Shown here piece after piece: positions 17,474 to 25,788 of a stretch of 64,000 nt of DNA. Both the position numbers and the translations under genes were made by a program. The notes beneath the pieces are model-generated. The model saw nothing but the letters and a program-made list of their open reading frames with translations, made no database searches and was not told where the DNA came from. Source of the stretch: Hyphomicrobiales bacterium (GTDB lineage Bacteria > Pseudomonadota > Alphaproteobacteria > Rhizobiales > Rhizobiaceae); contig UBXV01000005.1 in the NCBI GenBank assembly GCA_900469625.1, positions 45,844-109,843 of the forward strand, in the 5' to 3' direction. Every line of letters begins with the position of its first letter. Position 1 is the first letter of the stretch.

Positions 17474-20400
17474 ATGAAGTTCAACAAGCTTCGCCTGCTC
17501 GGCTTCAAGTCTTTCGTCGAACCCAGCGAATTCATCATCGAGCGCGGCTTGACCGGCATCGTCGGTCCGAATGGCTGCGGCAAGTCGAACCTTGTCGAAG
17601 CATTGCGCTGGGTGATGGGGGAAAACTCCTACAAGAACATGCGCGCGTCCGGCATGGACGACGTGATCTTTTCCGGCTCGGGCAATCGTCCGGCGCGCAA
17701 CACCGCCGAAGTCGGCCTCTATCTCGACAACAGCGATCGCACGGCACCTGCCGCCTTTAACGACAGCGACGAAATCCAGGTGACGCGCCGCATCGAGCGC
17801 GAACAGGGGTCGGTCTATAGGATCAACGGCAAGGAAGCGCGCGCAAAGGATGTGCAGCTCTTGTTTGCCGACGCCTCCACCGGCGCCCGTTCGCCGTCGA
17901 TGGTCGGCCAGGGGCGCATCGGCGAACTGATTTCGGCAAAGCCGCAGGCGCGCCGCCAGCTGCTGGAAGAAGCGGCCGGCATTTCCGGTCTGCATTCGCG
18001 CCGGCACGAGGCCGAGCTGCGGCTGAAGGCTGCCGAGACCAATCTCGAGCGCCTCGATGATGTGACCTCACAGCTCGAAAGCCAGATCGAGAGCCTGAAG
18101 CGCCAGGCCCGTCAGGCAAATCGCTTCAAGATGCTGTCGGCCGATATCCGCAAGCATGAGGCGATCCTGTTCCACATCCGCTGGGTCCAGGCCAAGGAGG
18201 CCGAGGCCGAGGCGACCAGCCAGCTCAACCAGGTGACGGCGCTGGTTGCGGAAAAGGCGCAGGCGCAGATGCAGGCGGCCAAGGATCAGGCGATTTCCAG
18301 CCTGAAACTGCCGGAGTTGCGCGAGAACGAGGCGAAGCTCGCCGCCGCCCTGCAGCGCCTGCAGATTGCCCGCTCGCAGCTCGAAGAAGATGCCGGCCGT
18401 ATCCTGCGCCGCCGCGACGAGCTGCAGCGCCGACTGGCGCAGCTGGCCGAGGATATCGCCCGCGAGGAACGCCTGGTTGCCGACAATGCCGGCATCATCG
18501 CCCGCCTCGACGAAGAGGACGAGGAACTGCGCGAGGCGCTTGGCGAGGCTGATGATCGAGCGAGCGAAGCCCGGGAGCGGCTCGAAGAGGCTAACGAGAA
18601 GTTGTCCGCAAGCGAAGCGGATCTGAGCCGGCTGACGGCCGAGCGTGCCGAGGCGCAGGCCGGCCGCAACCAGCTCGAGCGCGCATTGCGCGATCTGTCG
18701 GAACGCCAGGCGCGGCTGGCGCGCCAGTTGTCCGACCAGGCCCGCGATCTCGACGAACTCGACCGACAGATGGCATCGTTGCCCGACCCGCACGAAAAGC
18801 AGGGGCAGGTGGAGGTGGCCGAGGCGGCGCTTGAAGAGGCCGAAGCGAACGTCGCCGATATCGAGGAGGCGCTCGCCGAAACCCGCCGCGCCGAGGCAGA
18901 CGCCCGCCCACCGGTCGATCGGGCGCGGGCCGTGCTCAATGGCATCGAGACCGAGGCGCGCACGATCCGCCGGATGCTCGAAGCGGCAGGCGGCGGCGAC
19001 TATCCTGGTGTCGTCGAGGAGATGAAGGTCGATCGCGGCTTCGAGACGGCACTTGGAGCCGCGCTCGGCGACGATCTCGATTCGCCGCTCGACAATGCGG
19101 CTCCCGCCCACTGGCGCGCACCGGGCGACCATTCCGGCGATGCCCCTTTGCCGCCGGGCGTGCGCTCCTTGATCGAGCACGTTCGCGCGCCGCAGGCGCT
19201 TGCCCGTGCCTTGAGCCAGATCGGCATCGTCGACAGCGAAGCGGAGGCCGAGCGGCTGATGCCGGCGCTGAAGCCCGGCCAGAGCCTGGTGACGAAACAG
19301 GGTTCCGTCTGGCGCTGGGACGGCCATGTGACCGGCTCCGAAGCGCCGAGCGCTGCTGCGCTCAGGCTCGCCCAGAAAAACCGCCTTGCCGAACTGGATA
19401 CCGAAGCGGACGAAGCCGGCGAGGCGCTGCGCCGTGCCGAGGCCGATCTTGCTGCAGCCGGATCACGCATTCGCGCCGAAGACGAGCGGCTCAGGCTTGC
19501 GCGCGACGCGCAGCGCATGATCACGCGCCAGCTGGGCGAGGCCCGCGATGCGCTGGCTGCCGCCGAGCGCGCCTCCGGCGATCTCTCGCGCCGCCGTGCT
19601 GTTGTTGCCGAGACCAAGAGCCAGCTTGAAAGCCAGCTGGAGGAAGTCGCCGAGCAGATAGAGACCGCCAACGATGCGCTTGCCGATGCGCCCGACCTTT
19701 CCGAGCTAGAGCTGAAACTGCGCACGCAGACGGCGGATGTCGCAGCCGACCGCGCCGCGGTTGCCGAACGGCGCGCCGCCTATGATGGCCTGGCGCGCGA
19801 GAACGAGGCGCGGCAGCGTCGCATTGCGGCAATATCGGGCGAACGCCAGACCTGGAAGGCGCGGGCCGCGAGCGCAGACGAGCACATCGCCACCCTCAGG
19901 GACCGCGAGGCGGAAGCCCGCGAAGAGGTCGAAGACCTGATGGATGCGCCCGACGAGTTCGACGACAAGCGGCGCGCGCTGATGAACGAATTGCAGAAGG
20001 CTGAAGCGTCACGCCGCGAGGCCGCCGATATCCTCGCCGAGGCCGAAGGGCGCCAGCGCGAGGCTGACCGCATGGCCGCGACGGCGCTGTCTGAGCTGGC
20101 GGAATCGCGCGAAAAGCGCGGCCGCGCCGAGGAGCGGCTGGTGTCTGGCCGCGAGCGGCGCGTCGAGATCGAGGCCCGGATCCAGGAGGCGCTGTCCTGC
20201 GCTCCGCACGAAGTGATGCGGTTGACCGGGCTTGCCGTCGACGAAGCGTTGCCCGACATGCGCAATGTCGAGCGCGAGCTGGAACGGCTGAAGATCGAAC
20301 GCGAACGTCTTGGCGCCGTCAATCTGCGCGCCGAAGAGGAACAGAAGGAGCTGTCGGAGCGTCTCGCCCTGCTCCTGAAGGAGCGCGACGACGTCATCGA

Positions 20401-20935
20401 GGCGATCCGCAAGCTGCGCAGCGCCATCCAGAACCTCAACCGCGAGGGGCGCGAGCGGCTGATCGTCGCTTTCGACGTGGTCAACGCCCAGTTCCAGCGG
20501 CTCTTTACCCATCTCTTCGGCGGCGGCACGGCTGAACTGCAATTGATCGAGAGCGACGACCCGCTTGAAGCGGGCCTCGAGATCCTCGCTCGCCCACCGG
20601 GCAAGAAGCCGCAGACGATGACGCTGCTGTCGGGCGGCGAGCAGGCGCTGACGGCGATGGCGCTGATCTTTGCCGTCTTCCTCACCAATCCGGCGCCGAT
20701 CTGCGTGCTCGACGAAGTCGATGCCCCGCTCGACGACCACAATGTCGAGCGCTATTGCAACCTGATGGACGAGATGGCGGCGTCGACCGAGACCCGCTTC
20801 GTCATCATCACTCATAACCCGATCACCATGGCCCGCATGAACCGTCTGTTCGGCGTGACGATGGCAGAGCAGGGCGTGTCCCAGCTCGTTTCCGTCGATC
20901 TGCAGACCGCGGAGCGGCTGAGGGAAGTGGTCTAG
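17474..20935 (+). CDS. smc: chromosome segregation protein SMC
   Basis: The 1153-residue ATPase organises and segregates the chromosome. The Walker A motif GPNGCGKS is at residues 31-38. Two long coiled coils (rich in E, A, R, L) flank a hinge near residues 510-640 (YPGVVEEMKVDRGFETALGAALGDD and onward). The signature LLSGGEQAL and Walker B PICVLDEVDAPLDD lie in the C-terminal head. The expected partners ScpA and ScpB are not in the window. Its stop is four bases from the stop of the convergent caspase/lectin gene, with no visible terminator between them. Confidence 0.98.
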   Translation: MKFNKLRLLGFKSFVEPSEFIIERGLTGIVGPNGCGKSNLVEALRWVMGENSYKNMRASGMDDVIFSGSGNRPARNTAEVGLYLDNSDRTAPAAFNDSDEIQVTRRIEREQGSVYRINGKEARAKDVQLLFADASTGARSPSMVGQGRIGELISAKPQARRQLLEEAAGISGLHSRRHEAELRLKAAETNLERLDDVTSQLESQIESLKRQARQANRFKMLSADIRKHEAILFHIRWVQAKEAEAEATSQLNQVTALVAEKAQAQMQAAKDQAISSLKLPELRENEAKLAAALQRLQIARSQLEEDAGRILRRRDELQRRLAQLAEDIAREERLVADNAGIIARLDEEDEELREALGEADDRASEARERLEEANEKLSASEADLSRLTAERAEAQAGRNQLERALRDLSERQARLARQLSDQARDLDELDRQMASLPDPHEKQGQVEVAEAALEEAEANVADIEEALAETRRAEADARPPVDRARAVLNGIETEARTIRRMLEAAGGGDYPGVVEEMKVDRGFETALGAALGDDLDSPLDNAAPAHWRAPGDHSGDAPLPPGVRSLIEHVRAPQALARALSQIGIVDSEAEAERLMPALKPGQSLVTKQGSVWRWDGHVTGSEAPSAAALRLAQKNRLAELDTEADEAGEALRRAEADLAAAGSRIRAEDERLRLARDAQRMITRQLGEARDALAAAERASGDLSRRRAVVAETKSQLESQLEEVAEQIETANDALADAPDLSELELKLRTQTADVAADRAAVAERRAAYDGLARENEARQRRIAAISGERQTWKARAASADEHIATLRDREAEAREEVEDLMDAPDEFDDKRRALMNELQKAEASRREAADILAEAEGRQREADRMAATALSELAESREKRGRAEERLVSGRERRVEIEARIQEALSCAPHEVMRLTGLAVDEALPDMRNVERELERLKIERERLGAVNLRAEEEQKELSERLALLLKERDDVIEAIRKLRSAIQNLNREGRERLIVAFDVVNAQFQRLFTHLFGGGTAELQLIESDDPLEAGLEILARPPGKKPQTMTLLSGGEQALTAMALIFAVFLTNPAPICVLDEVDAPLDDHNVERYCNLMDEMAASTETRFVIITHNPITMARMNRLFGVTMAEQGVSQLVSVDLQTAERLREVV

Positions 20936-20939
20936 GCGG

Positions 20940-22757
20940 TCACTCGAATTCGAGAATGAGACCGCCGGTTCCGTCGGTTGGCCCCATGTCATCCCAGGTG
21001 TCGACATAGACGGACTTCGTGTCGACCTTTCCGCGGCGATGCGCGTAGTACATGCCGATATCGTCGCCCTTCTTGTCTTCGTTCGGCATGTCGGCGAACC
21101 ACTTCGTGTAGGTCATGCCGGAGCCGTTATCCCACCGCCAGCCGCCCTTCGGCTCCTTGCCCTGGGGGTCCTGCGTGAGGCCGATCCAGGGCCCCATCTT
21201 GTAGCTGACGTTTCCCCTTGGGTCGTAGCCCACCTGAAAGAAGCTCTGATCGGCGTTGAACAGCGACGCCACGAAGGCGTTCTCCTCCTCGGAGGAAATC
21301 GCCGCCAGATGCGCCCCGCAGCCGCTGGCGATCCCGCGCGCATAAACCGCCAGGATCGTGCCGGTTCTGACTGCCACATAGAGATGCCCGCCGAACACGC
21401 CATAGACGGTATCGAAATGACGCAGGCAGGTGAGGGCCTCCAGAACACGCTTGTCCGGTTCGAGGCCCTCGAGGTTGGCAACGTCGTAGCGCCGGGCTTT
21501 CGGCGCGCTATAGAGGCCCTCCGCGCTGTCATTGACGGCAATGCCGAGGGATTCTGCCGTGCGTTCGGTGATGAAACCACTCGCCGGCTGCCTTTCGGTG
21601 CTCTGGAAGAGTTTGATCGCCTCCCGTGTCAGTCCGCCGAAAACGCCGTCGGCCGTGCCGACGGTAAAGCCCTTGGCGACGAGTGCCAGCTGCACGTTCC
21701 GTCGCCGGTCCTTGTCGGGCAGAAGTCGCGCTTCGACCGATTGCGGCAGATGCGACTGGTTGCGGACCGCCGCGGGCTCGATCTGCGCCAGCGTCTGGCG
21801 TCCGAGGTCGGCATATTCGCCGCTGCGATGCTTTTCGACAAAGAAGTGCCAGATCCGTGGCGTCCCAACCCGGAGCGCCTTCTTGAAATCCCTTTCCGCT
21901 TCGAGTGCATCGGGATCTTCTGCCGGAACCGGTAGCGCCGGTGCGGCTGCCTCGATCCGTGGGGCCGCTTGCTCTTGCCCGAAGTAGAATTCGAGCGACA
22001 GCGAGGAGAGGATCTGCGGTGACTGTTTGCCGCCGGTATCCTTGCGCACATCGCGCACCACGCGCTTGAAGGCAGTGCCGACCTCGAGCCCGGCGCCGGA
22101 CAGATTGGCAATCAGGGCGCGGGTGAAAGGTGAATGGCCGTCGGTGCCGTCGGCGGCCACCTGTCCCGGCGCTGCTGCAAACGCAACGAGAGTGCCGGAA
22201 CCTTGCGTTTCGATCGGTGCGAGACCGCGGGTGGCAATGCCGCGCGTGGCGCCGTCGACATCGACGTTGAGTTTGTTGGCCAGCGGATTGTTGCGGCAGG
22301 CGTCGAGAAAGACGAGCGATATCCGCGCACGCTTTTCGAGCGCATTGATGATCTCTGTGAGAGCCACGGTTTCCGCCGGAACGTCGAACTCGCTTTCGAG
22401 CCTGGCGTCGGTGCCGATCAGGAAATTCTCGCCGCGAAGCTGCATGCCATGCCCGGCAAAATAGAACAGCGCTGTGTCCTCTGGCCCGATGTTGCGGGAG
22501 AAACGCGACAGCGCCTCGGCAAAATGACGGCGATCGGCATTGACCACCAGTTCCGCTTCAAAACCCTGGCTCTTGAGAAAGTCGCTGAAGGCTTCGGCGT
22601 CGCGCGCCGCGTTCGGTAGCGTGCCGGCAACGGCGTAGTCGCTCATGCCCACGACCAGCGCCATCCGTTTGCCGGCGTTTTCAGCCAAGGCGAAGCCCGG
22701 GGCAAGCAGCAGCAGGAGAGAAAGCACCGAAAAGCCAAGCTTCGCACGACATTCCAT
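20940..22757 (-). CDS. secreted caspase-like protein with peptidoglycan-binding and C-type lectin domains
   Basis: The 605-residue product starts at ATG 22757 behind GGAGG, with a signal peptide (1-25, ending FALA). Residues about 31-258 form a caspase/metacaspase (C14) domain with the dyad H103 (FAGHGMQ) and C154 (LDACRNNP). Residues about 350-405 form a PG_binding_1-like domain (GTADGVFGGLTREAIKLFQ). Residues about 447-605 look like a C-type lectin fold: GAHLAAISSEEENAFV, WIGL, GGWRWDNGSGMTY.KWF, WDDM and a terminal ILEFE. The dyad is complete, so it is likely an active cysteine protease exported to the periplasm or outside. Its targets are unknown. It is convergent with smc and stands alone. 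Confidence 0.85.
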   Translation of the reverse strand: MECRAKLGFSVLSLLLLLAPGFALAENAGKRMALVVGMSDYAVAGTLPNAARDAEAFSDFLKSQGFEAELVVNADRRHFAEALSRFSRNIGPEDTALFYFAGHGMQLRGENFLIGTDARLESEFDVPAETVALTEIINALEKRARISLVFLDACRNNPLANKLNVDVDGATRGIATRGLAPIETQGSGTLVAFAAAPGQVAADGTDGHSPFTRALIANLSGAGLEVGTAFKRVVRDVRKDTGGKQSPQILSSLSLEFYFGQEQAAPRIEAAAPALPVPAEDPDALEAERDFKKALRVGTPRIWHFFVEKHRSGEYADLGRQTLAQIEPAAVRNQSHLPQSVEARLLPDKDRRRNVQLALVAKGFTVGTADGVFGGLTREAIKLFQSTERQPASGFITERTAESLGIAVNDSAEGLYSAPKARRYDVANLEGLEPDKRVLEALTCLRHFDTVYGVFGGHLYVAVRTGTILAVYARGIASGCGAHLAAISSEEENAFVASLFNADQSFFQVGYDPRGNVSYKMGPWIGLTQDPQGKEPKGGWRWDNGSGMTYTKWFADMPNEDKKGDDIGMYYAHRRGKVDTKSVYVDTWDDMGPTDGTGGLILEFE

Positions 22758-23121: not shown

Positions 23122-25788
23122 ATGACGAAATGGGTTTACACCTTCGGTGGGGGCAAGGCCGAAGGTCGGGCGGGCGATCGTGACCGGCTGGGTGGCAAGG
23201 GCGCGAACCTTGCGGAAATGTGCAGCCTCGGCCTGCCGGTGCCGCCGGGACTGACGATCATCACAGATGCCTGCAACAGCTATTTCGACAATGGCCGCGA
23301 AATACCCGCCGGGTTGCACGATCAGGTCCGCGAAGGCATTCGCCGGATGGAGGAAATCACCGGCCGGGTCTTTGGTGACATCAACCGTCCGCTGCTGCTT
23401 TCCGTGCGTTCCGGTGCCCGTGCGTCGATGCCGGGCATGATGGACACGGTCCTCAATCTCGGCCTCAACGATCAGTCCGTACATGCGCTCGGTCACGATG
23501 CCGGCGATGCGCGCTTTGCCTGGGACAGCTATCGGCGTTTCATCCAGATGTATGGCGACGTCGTCATGGGCGTCGATCATGACGTGTTCGAAGAGATCCT
23601 CGAGGACGAGAAGGCCCGCCTCGGCCACGAGCAGGATACAGAGCTTTCCGCGGTCGAGTGGCAGCATGTCATTTCCCGTTACAAGGAAGCGATCGAGGAA
23701 GCGCTCGGCGAGCCCTTTCCCCAGGACCCGGAAATCCAGCTCTGGGGCGCGATCGGCGCCGTGTTTTCAAGCTGGATGAACCCGCGCGCCATCACCTACC
23801 GCCACCTGCATTCCATCCCGGCGGCATGGGGCACGGCGGTCAACGTCCAGGCGATGGTGTTCGGCAATCTCGGCAATTCGTCGGCAACCGGCGTTGCCTT
23901 TACCCGTAACCCATCGACGGGAGAGAACGAGCTTTACGGCGAGTTCCTCGTCAATGCCCAGGGTGAGGACGTGGTCGCCGGCATCCGCACGCCGCAAAAC
24001 ATCACCGAGGCCGCTCGTATCGCGTCGGGCTCCGACAAGCCGTCGCTTGAAAAGCTGATGCCGGAAGCCTTTGCCGAGTTTCGCGCCATCTGCGACAAGC
24101 TCGAGCGGCACTATCGCGACATGCAGGATCTCGAATTCACCATCGAACGCGGCACGCTCTGGATGCTGCAGACCCGCTCCGGCAAGCGCACGGCCAAGGC
24201 CGCGCTCAAGATCGCCGTCGACATGGCGGACGAGGGACTGATCTCGACGAACGAAGCGGTCGCCCGCATCGATCCGGCTTCGCTCGACCAGTTGCTGCAC
24301 CCGACGATCGATCCGCATGCACGCCGCGATATCATCGGCTCCGGCCTTCCGGCGTCGCCGGGGGCGGCAACAGGAGAAATGGTCTTCACCTCCGAGGAGG
24401 CAGTCCAGGCCGACAAGGAAGGCCGCAAGGTCATTCTCGTGCGCATCGAAACCAGCCCTGAAGACATTCACGGGATGCATGCCGCCGAGGGAATTCTGAC
24501 GACGCGCGGCGGCATGACCAGCCACGCCGCGGTGGTCGCGCGCGGGATGGGCACGCCATGCGTTTCCGGCGCGGGCAGCATTCGCGTCGATCTGCGCAAC
24601 GAATTGCTGATCACCCCGAGCGTGACGCTGAAGAAGGGTGACGTCATCACCATCGACGGCTCTTCAGGTCAGGTGCTGAAGGGGGCGATCGCCATGCTCC
24701 AGCCGGAACTCTCCGGCGATTTCGGGAAGATCATGGCCTGGGCGGATGCGAGCCGCCGCATGACCGTGCGCACCAACGCCGAAACGCCGGCCGACGCGCG
24801 TGCTGCGCGCTCCTTCGGCGCCGAAGGCATCGGTCTTTGCCGCACCGAGCACATGTTCTTCGAGGACGGGCGCATCAATGTCATGCGCGAGATGATCCTT
24901 GCGGAAGACGAGGCAGGCCGGCGCATGGCGCTTGCCAAGCTGTTGCCGATGCAGCGCTCGGACTTCGTCGAACTCTTCTCGATCATGCACGGCCTGCCGG
25001 TTACCATTCGCCTGCTCGACCCGCCTCTGCACGAATTCCTGCCGAAGACCGACGAGGAAATCGCCGATGTCGCCGGCGTGCTTTCACTCGATCCGTCAGC
25101 CCTGCGCCAGCGCGTCGATCAGCTGCACGAGTTCAATCCCATGCTCGGCCATCGTGGTTGCCGGCTCGCCATCTCCTATCCGGAGATCGCCGAGATGCAG
25201 GCTCGCGCCATCTTCGAGGCGGCCGTCGAGGCCGCGCGCGAAACCGGTGCTCCCGTCGTGCCTGAAATCATGGTGCCGCTCGTCGGCCTGCGCGCCGAGC
25301 TCGACTACGTCAAGGAACGCATCGATGCGGTGGCAAAGGCCGTGATCGGCGAGGCCGGCATCGAGATCGACTATCTCGTCGGCACGATGATCGAGCTGCC
25401 GCGCGCAGCCCTTCGCGCCCATGTGATTGCCGAGGCCGCCGACTTCTTCTCCTTCGGCACCAACGACCTGACCCAGACGACCTTCGGCATTTCGCGCGAC
25501 GATGCCTCGCAGTTCCTGGCGACCTATCAGCAGAAGGGCATCATCGAGCAGGATCCTTTCGTCTCGCTCGATTTCGACGGGGTCGGCGAGTTGATCCAGA
25601 TTGCTGCCGAACGTGGACGCCGCACCAAGAACGGGCTGAAGCTCGGCATCTGCGGCGAGCACGGCGGTGATCCCGCCTCGATCCGCTTCTGCGAGGATGC
25701 CGGCCTCGACTACGTCTCCTGTTCGCCGTTCCGCGTGCCGATCGCCCGGCTGGCAGCCGCACAGGCGGCCATCAACGGCAAGGCGTGA
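23122..25788 (+). CDS. ppdK: pyruvate phosphate dikinase
   Basis: The 888-residue enzyme interconverts pyruvate + ATP + Pi with PEP + AMP + PPi, supporting gluconeogenesis or anaplerotic flux. The N-terminal ATP-grasp domain (LGGKGANLAEM, SVRSGARASMPGMMDTVLN), the phosphohistidine domain with the catalytic His in GGMTSHAAVVARGMGTPCVSG (landmark only) and the C-terminal PEP/pyruvate barrel (GICGEHGGDP) are all complete, in the usual order and length. The start is ATG 23122. It is monocistronic between a divergent promoter and a hairpin at 25816. Confidence 0.98.
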   Translation: MTKWVYTFGGGKAEGRAGDRDRLGGKGANLAEMCSLGLPVPPGLTIITDACNSYFDNGREIPAGLHDQVREGIRRMEEITGRVFGDINRPLLLSVRSGARASMPGMMDTVLNLGLNDQSVHALGHDAGDARFAWDSYRRFIQMYGDVVMGVDHDVFEEILEDEKARLGHEQDTELSAVEWQHVISRYKEAIEEALGEPFPQDPEIQLWGAIGAVFSSWMNPRAITYRHLHSIPAAWGTAVNVQAMVFGNLGNSSATGVAFTRNPSTGENELYGEFLVNAQGEDVVAGIRTPQNITEAARIASGSDKPSLEKLMPEAFAEFRAICDKLERHYRDMQDLEFTIERGTLWMLQTRSGKRTAKAALKIAVDMADEGLISTNEAVARIDPASLDQLLHPTIDPHARRDIIGSGLPASPGAATGEMVFTSEEAVQADKEGRKVILVRIETSPEDIHGMHAAEGILTTRGGMTSHAAVVARGMGTPCVSGAGSIRVDLRNELLITPSVTLKKGDVITIDGSSGQVLKGAIAMLQPELSGDFGKIMAWADASRRMTVRTNAETPADARAARSFGAEGIGLCRTEHMFFEDGRINVMREMILAEDEAGRRMALAKLLPMQRSDFVELFSIMHGLPVTIRLLDPPLHEFLPKTDEEIADVAGVLSLDPSALRQRVDQLHEFNPMLGHRGCRLAISYPEIAEMQARAIFEAAVEAARETGAPVVPEIMVPLVGLRAELDYVKERIDAVAKAVIGEAGIEIDYLVGTMIELPRAALRAHVIAEAADFFSFGTNDLTQTTFGISRDDASQFLATYQQKGIIEQDPFVSLDFDGVGELIQIAAERGRRTKNGLKLGICGEHGGDPASIRFCEDAGLDYVSCSPFRVPIARLAAAQAAINGKA

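What the first reader, a model, noticed from the sequence alone, without database searches (positions are those of the whole stretch)
20940..22757. Exported protein joining a caspase domain, a peptidoglycan-binding domain and a C-type lectin domain
The product has a signal peptide, a caspase-like domain with an intact His-Cys dyad (H103/C154), a PG_binding_1-like module and a C-terminal region with the C-type lectin pattern (GAHLAAISSEEEN, WIGL, GGWRWDNG, WDDM, closing ILEFE). Caspase plus PGBD is known from some rhizobial proteins; the lectin end is unusual and suggests a secreted protease that binds cell wall on one side and glycans on the other. A role in self-lysis, defence or host contact is inference.
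Basis: partly seen in the sequence, partly recalled or inferred. Interest (0 to 1): 0.78.

Follow-up and report, generated by a model that had tools for sequence, protein, structure and literature searches.

The report
Caspase with exchangeable lectin end
A soil bacterium makes an exported caspase-like protease joined to a cell-wall-binding part and an animal-style sugar-binding fold; related strains keep the protease half alike while swapping the recognition half, or lose the gene altogether, as one might expect of a recognition system rather than a housekeeping enzyme.

Summary

The gene occupies a fixed slot between smc and ppdK. Across 16 Ensifer genomes the slot is intact in 10, decayed in 4 and empty in 2, although SMC is 91-98% identical to the window's. 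At least five lectin types exist. In 3 of 8 same-genome pairs the caspase half is 97% identical (dS about 0.1) while the lectin half is 63-69% identical (dS above 1 or saturated); identity breaks at codons 259-270, the end of the caspase domain. Caspase and lectin trees conflict (AU p at most 6e-7, groups named after inspection).

Best reading: a wall-anchored periplasmic protease under a lectin sensor, with a homogenised effector and exchangeable recognition cassettes. Ligand, substrate and biological role are inferred, not shown.

The parts
20940..22757 (-). caspase - PG_binding_1 - C-type lectin gene (605 aa), lectin type I
22683..22757 (-). putative Sec signal peptide, residues 1-25 (ALA|EN)
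   Evidence: sequence by eye; no program run
21984..22670 (-). caspase (C14) domain, residues 30-258
22449..22451 (-). catalytic His103
   Evidence: invariant 34 of 34
22296..22298 (-). catalytic Cys154
   Evidence: invariant 34 of 34
21948..21983 (-). codons 259-270: where the shared tract of alike copies ends in relatives (module boundary, carried over by codon number of the relatives, whose numbering differs from the window's by a few residues)
21723..21914 (-). helical linker, residues 282-345
   Evidence: AlphaFold2 secondary structure
21546..21710 (-). PG_binding_1 domain, residues 350-404
20943..21416 (-). C-type lectin fold, residues 448-605
21426..21428 (-). Cys444, predicted partner of Cys480
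   Evidence: both or neither Cys in 34 of 34 rows, 26 with both
21318..21320 (-). Cys480, predicted partner of Cys444
21078..21089 (-). MPNE, residues 557-560, at the place of the EPN calcium/sugar motif
   Evidence: alignment; motif name recalled
20988..20996 (-). WDD, residues 588-590, at the place of the WND motif; W588 invariant in 34 of 34
   Evidence: motif name recalled
17474..20935 (+). smc, left wall of the slot (convergent, ends 4 bp before the lectin gene's stop)
   Evidence: product name recalled from the sequence, no profile run
23122..25788 (+). ppdK (pyruvate phosphate dikinase), right wall of the slot
   Evidence: product name recalled from the sequence, no profile run

Best explanation
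The protein is a periplasmic, peptidoglycan-anchored paracaspase-like protease under a C-type lectin sensor. Shown: the architecture, the intact dyad, the predicted fold of both end domains, and an evolutionary pattern in which the caspase half is held alike (homogenised between copies in one genome, in some genomes) while the linker, wall-binding and lectin half exists in discrete, internally conserved types that are exchanged, duplicated and lost at a fixed chromosomal slot. Inferred: the lectin binds a glycan or other envelope ligand that differs between strains or opponents; binding (or loss of binding) frees or clusters the caspase, which then cleaves, probably after Arg/Lys, envelope or periplasmic targets and stops or kills the cell or a partner. 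The gene would then be a recognition/conflict device with one effector and several recognition cassettes, not a housekeeping protease.
For: Domains and fold. Dyad invariant 34/34. C444/C480 both or neither in 34/34, fitting an exported oxidised domain (rows are related, so these are not 34 independent cases). Fixed slot smc|ppdK in Ensifer and in Rhizobium relatives L059-L061. Slot states in 16 Ensifer genomes: 10 intact, 4 decayed, 2 empty. Same-genome pairs G007, G001, G005: caspase DNA 97%, dS 0.09-0.11; lectin DNA 63-69%, dS saturated, 1.18, 1.14; four-fold sites p 5e-13, 4e-10, 5e-7, against 0.20, 0.46 and 1.0 for three same-type between-species control pairs. Tract ends at codons 270, 259, 269, and 263 for the G013/G014 slot pair. 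Conflicting trees: copies group by genome for caspase, by type for lectin. Purifying selection within lectin type I, median dN/dS 0.088 over 28 pairs.
Against: No ligand, substrate or phenotype is known. Homogenisation is strong in only 3 of 8 Ensifer same-genome pairs. G008 a/c and the two tested G027 pairs show none (p 0.83, 0.6, 1.0); the window's own two copies show only a weak contrast (p 1.6e-3, caspase dS 0.98); G009's tandem pair shows a tract only over codons 38-113. Type IV lectins keep the fold's tryptophans but not the calcium-site residues. No conserved partner gene besides smc and ppdK stood out in the loci compared. PADLOC gives only its generic caspase model.
Confidence: 0.45

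Rival explanations
1. Self-glycan matching: the lectin recognises the strain's own surface polysaccharide (LPS, capsule, exopolysaccharide) and localises or gates a protease that matures envelope proteins. Lectin types change because serotypes change.
For: Wall-binding module and likely export; discrete conserved types under purifying selection fit a small set of self-glycans; this genome's second copy lies next to a glycosyltransferase gene.
Against: Decay or absence of the slot gene in 6 of 16 genomes is odd for a needed maturation enzyme; one genome can hold two or three lectin types.
Confidence: 0.27
2. Neutral modular drift: the lectin half has relaxed constraint or came in with divergent imported alleles; gene conversion keeps only the still-similar caspase half alike, without selection for recognition diversity.
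For: Conversion needs similarity, so a diverged half escapes passively; type IV has lost calcium-site residues and has the highest within-type lectin dN/dS of the three types computed (0.177).
Against: Type I lectin dN/dS 0.088, close to that of its caspase (0.067); lectin residues W542, P558 and W588 are kept in 34 of 34.
Confidence: 0.15
3. Predation or contact-lysis factor: the protein leaves the cell and attacks other bacteria. E. adhaerens Casida A, of a species described as a bacterial predator, has three intact copies.
For: G009, which by replicon length is Casida A, carries two slot copies and one on plasmid pCasidaAB; the species was first described as a predatory bacterium (passages of PMC4051167).
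Against: Same architecture in marine Roseobacter-group and in Rhizobium species, for which I know of no predation (recall); intact copies are also in 9 other Ensifer genomes whose habits I could not check.
Confidence: 0.1
4. Diversity-generating retroelement target.
For: C-type lectin folds are common DGR targets and cyanobacterial DGR targets can carry orthocaspase-like domains (passages of PMC7517822).
Against: No RVT_1 match in the genome (3 of 14 control genomes ring); the whole C-terminal half, not a short stretch, differs; purifying selection within types.
Confidence: 0.01

Closest known systems
Prokaryotic caspase homologues (metacaspase/orthocaspase, Pfam PF00656) with a peptidoglycan-binding domain
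   Same: C14 p20 fold with His-Cys dyad plus PG_binding_1; the 2012 survey lists 11 of 671 bacterial sequences with a putative peptidoglycan-binding domain (PMC3501461, passages)
   Different: C-terminal C-type lectin domain (the word lectin was not found in that survey's main text), fixed slot, exchange of the C-terminal half
EACC1-caspase 'System 4' (PMC7159879, one section and passages seen)
   Same: constant N-terminal caspase with exchangeable C-terminal domains
   Different: no adjacent EACC1-type partner (neighbours are smc and ppdK), NF047832 below cut-off (64.4 of 140 bits); likely exported and wall-anchored; the variation lies within one lectin fold rather than in swapped effector domains
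Cyanobacterial DGR variable proteins with orthocaspase-like N-terminus and C-type-lectin-like C-terminus (PMC7517822, passages)
   Same: caspase-like N-terminus, C-type-lectin-like C-terminus, C-terminal variation
   Different: no reverse transcriptase in this genome, whole-half exchange instead of short mutated stretches, Lectin_C profile match, likely exported
Animal C-type lectin receptors (CD23, mannose receptor, collectins)
   Different: one predicted disulfide (C444-C480) instead of the canonical pairs (recalled); calcium-site residues only partly kept; fused to a protease

Membership tests
Peptidase C14 (prokaryotic caspase homologue) | p20 caspase domain above curated cut-off | tested here: met
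Peptidase C14 (prokaryotic caspase homologue) | His-Cys catalytic dyad | tested here: met
   H103, C154 in 34 of 34
Peptidase C14 (prokaryotic caspase homologue) | cleavage after Arg/Lys | not testable with these tools
   basic P1 preference described for the non-caspase C14 members characterised (PMC5756287 passages); D53 and D152 invariant, their pocket role recalled from MALT1
PG_binding_1 | domain above curated cut-off | tested here: met
   37.5 bits against 23; 34 of 34 members match at E <= 0.01
PG_binding_1 | binds peptidoglycan | not testable with these tools
   no binding assay possible
C-type lectin domain | CTLD fold and Lectin_C profile | tested here: met
C-type lectin domain | calcium-site motifs EPN/QPD and WND (recalled) | tested here: inconclusive
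   window has MPN and WDD; L070 and L071 have PNN and WND; type IV lacks them
C-type lectin domain | two conserved disulfides of the canonical animal domain (recalled) | tested here: not met
   C154, C444 and C480 are the only Cys beyond residue 30 of the window protein; filed as member of the fold only
EACC1-caspase System 4 | NF047832 caspase above cut-off and adjacent EACC1 gene | tested here: not met
   64.4 of 140 bits; neighbours are smc and ppdK
DGR variable protein | reverse transcriptase in the genome | tested here: not met
   0 RVT_1 matches in G000; 3 of 14 control genomes ring
Known anti-phage defence system | match to a specific PADLOC system | tested here: not met
   only the model PDLC02987 'caspase', 48.1 bits

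The most novel reading that the evidence does not exclude
A bacterial pattern-recognition protease: an animal-style C-type lectin directly fused to a caspase in the periplasm, kept as a polymorphic locus in which one effector half is homogenised by recombination and several recognition halves are swapped, so that closely related strains carry different specificities (allorecognition, phage sensing or partner sensing).
Probability: 0.3. Interest if true: 0.86.

Novelty: new variant of a known kind. Interest (0 to 1): 0.67.

Why it matters
Functions of bacterial caspase homologues are mostly unknown, largely because inputs and outputs are unknown. Here the recognition part is a well-understood fold that can be cloned alone and put on glycan arrays, natural alleles give ready-made specificity swaps, and natural loss strains give null backgrounds. 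It would also be a case of a lectin-plus-caspase recognition device, an association familiar from animal immunity, in free-living bacteria, with an evolution pattern (constant effector, exchangeable sensor) typical of conflict systems.

Tried and rejected
Diversity-generating retroelement: rejected. Phage origin of the lectin: no match at E <= 1e-4 in 50,697 phage records by tblastn. Known defence system: only the PADLOC model named 'caspase'. Positive selection within lectin types: not seen in the three types computed. Solved structures with the single sequence P0001: none at E <= 0.001; the lectin profile finds animal CTLDs, but the best whole-chain E-values add up many weak repeats, while single-domain chains give about 2e-10. 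Promoter, terminator and tandem-repeat scans near the gene gave nothing above chance. Neighbours of the off-slot copies (M20 peptidase, cation efflux, DNA polymerase; amidase, Mrp-type antiporter; transketolase-like, glycosyltransferase) show no shared theme (10 proteins scanned of those predicted). The full-length model's PDB list was filled by caspases, so the lectin was folded alone.

Results that weaken my reading: no homogenisation in G008 a/c, nor in the two of three G027 pairs tested; a weak contrast only in the window's own two copies; only 3 of 8 Ensifer same-genome pairs are strong. The groups in the AU tests were named after I had seen the alignment, so those p-values are post hoc, and the tool warned of a long, oddly composed row in the lectin tree (G000:C35, type IV). 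A recent duplication followed by replacement of the C-terminal half would give the same picture as gene conversion; both are module exchange and I cannot separate them. The slot gene of G010 and G008's middle copy look broken but could hold sequencing errors. The wide genome searches scored at most 9 candidates a genome, so their counts are lower bounds.

Full report

Chemistry kept. H103 and C154 are invariant in 34 of 34 aligned full-length or nearly full-length relatives. D53 and D152 are invariant too; from memory these correspond to acidic S1-pocket residues of MALT1, which would favour Arg/Lys at P1. C444 and C480 are both present in 26 rows and both absent in 8, never mixed, which predicts one disulfide in an exported domain. 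At the calcium site the window has MPN and WDD, two relatives (L070, L071) have PNN with WND, and the type IV group (including the second copy of this genome, G000:C35) has lost the residues.

Where it occurs. The genome has six C14 matches and two Lectin_C matches, both caspase fusions. By replicon length and record title, G009 is E. adhaerens Casida A, G014 E. canadensis T173 and G007 probably E. adhaerens W2-B9; this naming is by length match only. A lectin-only profile (A3, 29 rows) finds matches in 13 of 16 Ensifer genomes (scraps included), 20 of 394 of the family, 5 of 397 of the order and 6 of 385 of the class; the window's genome is in each count, the draws overlap, and in the last three at most 9 candidates a genome were scored. 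Of the nine further genomes fetched for a look outside Ensifer, six carry the full caspase-PGB-lectin protein (G931, G441, G322, G245, G182, and G096 with a frameshift), while three carry the lectin on other proteins: a cyclase (G068), a large protein (G036) and an RTX-repeat protein (G310). The weak matches below these (such as G019, G104, G162, G230, G416, G470, G581, G913, G921, G932, G1073) were not looked at. G931 has three such genes within 24 kb.

The slot. In the Ensifer loci examined at this site and in Rhizobium-type loci L059-L061 the gene sits between smc and ppdK, antisense to smc. States in the 16 genomes: intact in 10 (one copy in G000, G002, G006, G007, G013, G014; two in G001, G005, G009; G008 two intact with a broken one between them); decayed in 4 (G003, G004, G010, G015); no trace at E 1e-3 in 2 (G011, G012). 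G003, G004 and G015 have SMC 98% identical to the window's. Their scraps differ (G003 nearest to a type II lectin at 43%, G004 and G015 nearest to the window's), and G010 is a decayed type II, so the gene was lost more than once.

Two halves, two histories. For the same-genome pairs G007 (chromosome slot and plasmid), G001 and G005 (tandem), the caspase half is 97% identical in DNA with dS 0.09-0.11, while the lectin half is 63-69% identical with dS saturated, 1.18 and 1.14. Between 11 Ensifer genomes smc and ppdK have dS 0.22-1.0, so the caspase halves are closer than any species pair compared. Counting only four-fold degenerate sites, differences are 12/142 against 28/44, 9/145 against 22/44 and 14/143 against 20/43 (p 5e-13, 4e-10, 5e-7); the three same-type Ensifer control pairs between species show no contrast (p 0.20, 0.46, 1.0), nor do a Rhizobium-type pair and a Mesorhizobium pair of like lectins (p 0.21, 0.69). 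The shared tract ends at codons 270, 259 and 269, the end of the caspase domain. The caspase tree groups these copies by genome (100/98 or better); the lectin tree groups them by type across genomes (types I, II and III each 100/99); holding either pattern on the other half's data is rejected (p from 6e-7 to 7e-73, groups named after inspection). In the slot itself, G014 (E. canadensis) and G013 share 98-100% DNA just downstream and 84-92% in the caspase half but 49-76% in the C-terminal half (four-fold p 2e-6), and the loci L060 and L061 show the same contrast (p 1e-4). Other pairs do not: G008 a/c p 0.83; G009 a/b p 0.09, with a tract over codons 38-113 only; two G027 pairs p 0.6 and 1.0; the window's slot copy against G000:C35 is intermediate (54/122 against 25/33, p 1.6e-3, both halves old).

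Selection. Type I lectins (8 genomes, 28 pairs) have median dN/dS 0.088, like their caspases (0.067). So lectins of a type are not hypervariable; they come as a few conserved alternatives that are exchanged whole.

How it probably works. Shown: architecture, predicted folds, intact dyad, slot turnover and module exchange. Inferred from these: export, wall anchoring through PG_binding_1, ligand reading by the lectin, and gating of the caspase. The pattern of constant effector plus exchangeable sensor, with repeated loss, resembles conflict or recognition loci more than housekeeping genes; I put the conflict/recognition reading at 0.45 and list self-glycan matching, neutral drift and predation as rivals.

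Against the literature. The 2012 survey of bacterial metacaspases reports 11 of 671 sequences with a peptidoglycan-binding domain, and the word lectin was not found in its main text (PMC3501461, passages). Kaur et al. describe a constant caspase with up to 50 alternative C-terminal domains beside EACC1 (PMC7159879, passages and one section); this gene fails that membership. Cyanobacterial DGR targets can pair orthocaspase-like and lectin-like domains (PMC7517822, passages). Four searches of the open-access library (1 paper listed of 1, 11 of 11, 3 of 3, 10 of 519) listed no paper on this three-part protein or its exchange, judged by titles and abstract beginnings apart from the papers named; most subscription papers and preprints are not in that library.

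Noticed in passing
L153 and L154 (G931:C1:970000-1003000): Three caspase-PGB-lectin genes and three further caspase genes within about 25 kb; the caspase domains attached to the lectins look like at least two subtypes (own-profile scores 217-220 against 343).
   Followed up: partly
L160:4814-6007: A related lectin fused to an adenylate/guanylate cyclase domain (Guanylate_cyc 48 bits; lectin by own profile 106 bits); a Rhizobium beringeri plasmid has a match in a gene annotated as cyclase.
   Followed up: no
L162:2020-4662: RTX calcium-binding repeat protein with a C-terminal Lectin_C domain.
   Followed up: no
L039:5600-7760 and matching stretches of L046, L055, L169, L170, L172: A 2-kb segment (AraC-type regulator plus a protein without Pfam match) lies between the slot gene's place and ppdK in six close relatives but is missing from the window, where only short ends remain.
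   Followed up: partly
G000:C52 (L005, L006): Two adjacent caspase genes of another kind (506 and 517 aa) in the window's genome.
   Followed up: no
L157:4538-6444: Caspase-lectin gene of another Rhizobiaceae genome split into two overlapping frames, another decayed copy.
   Followed up: no
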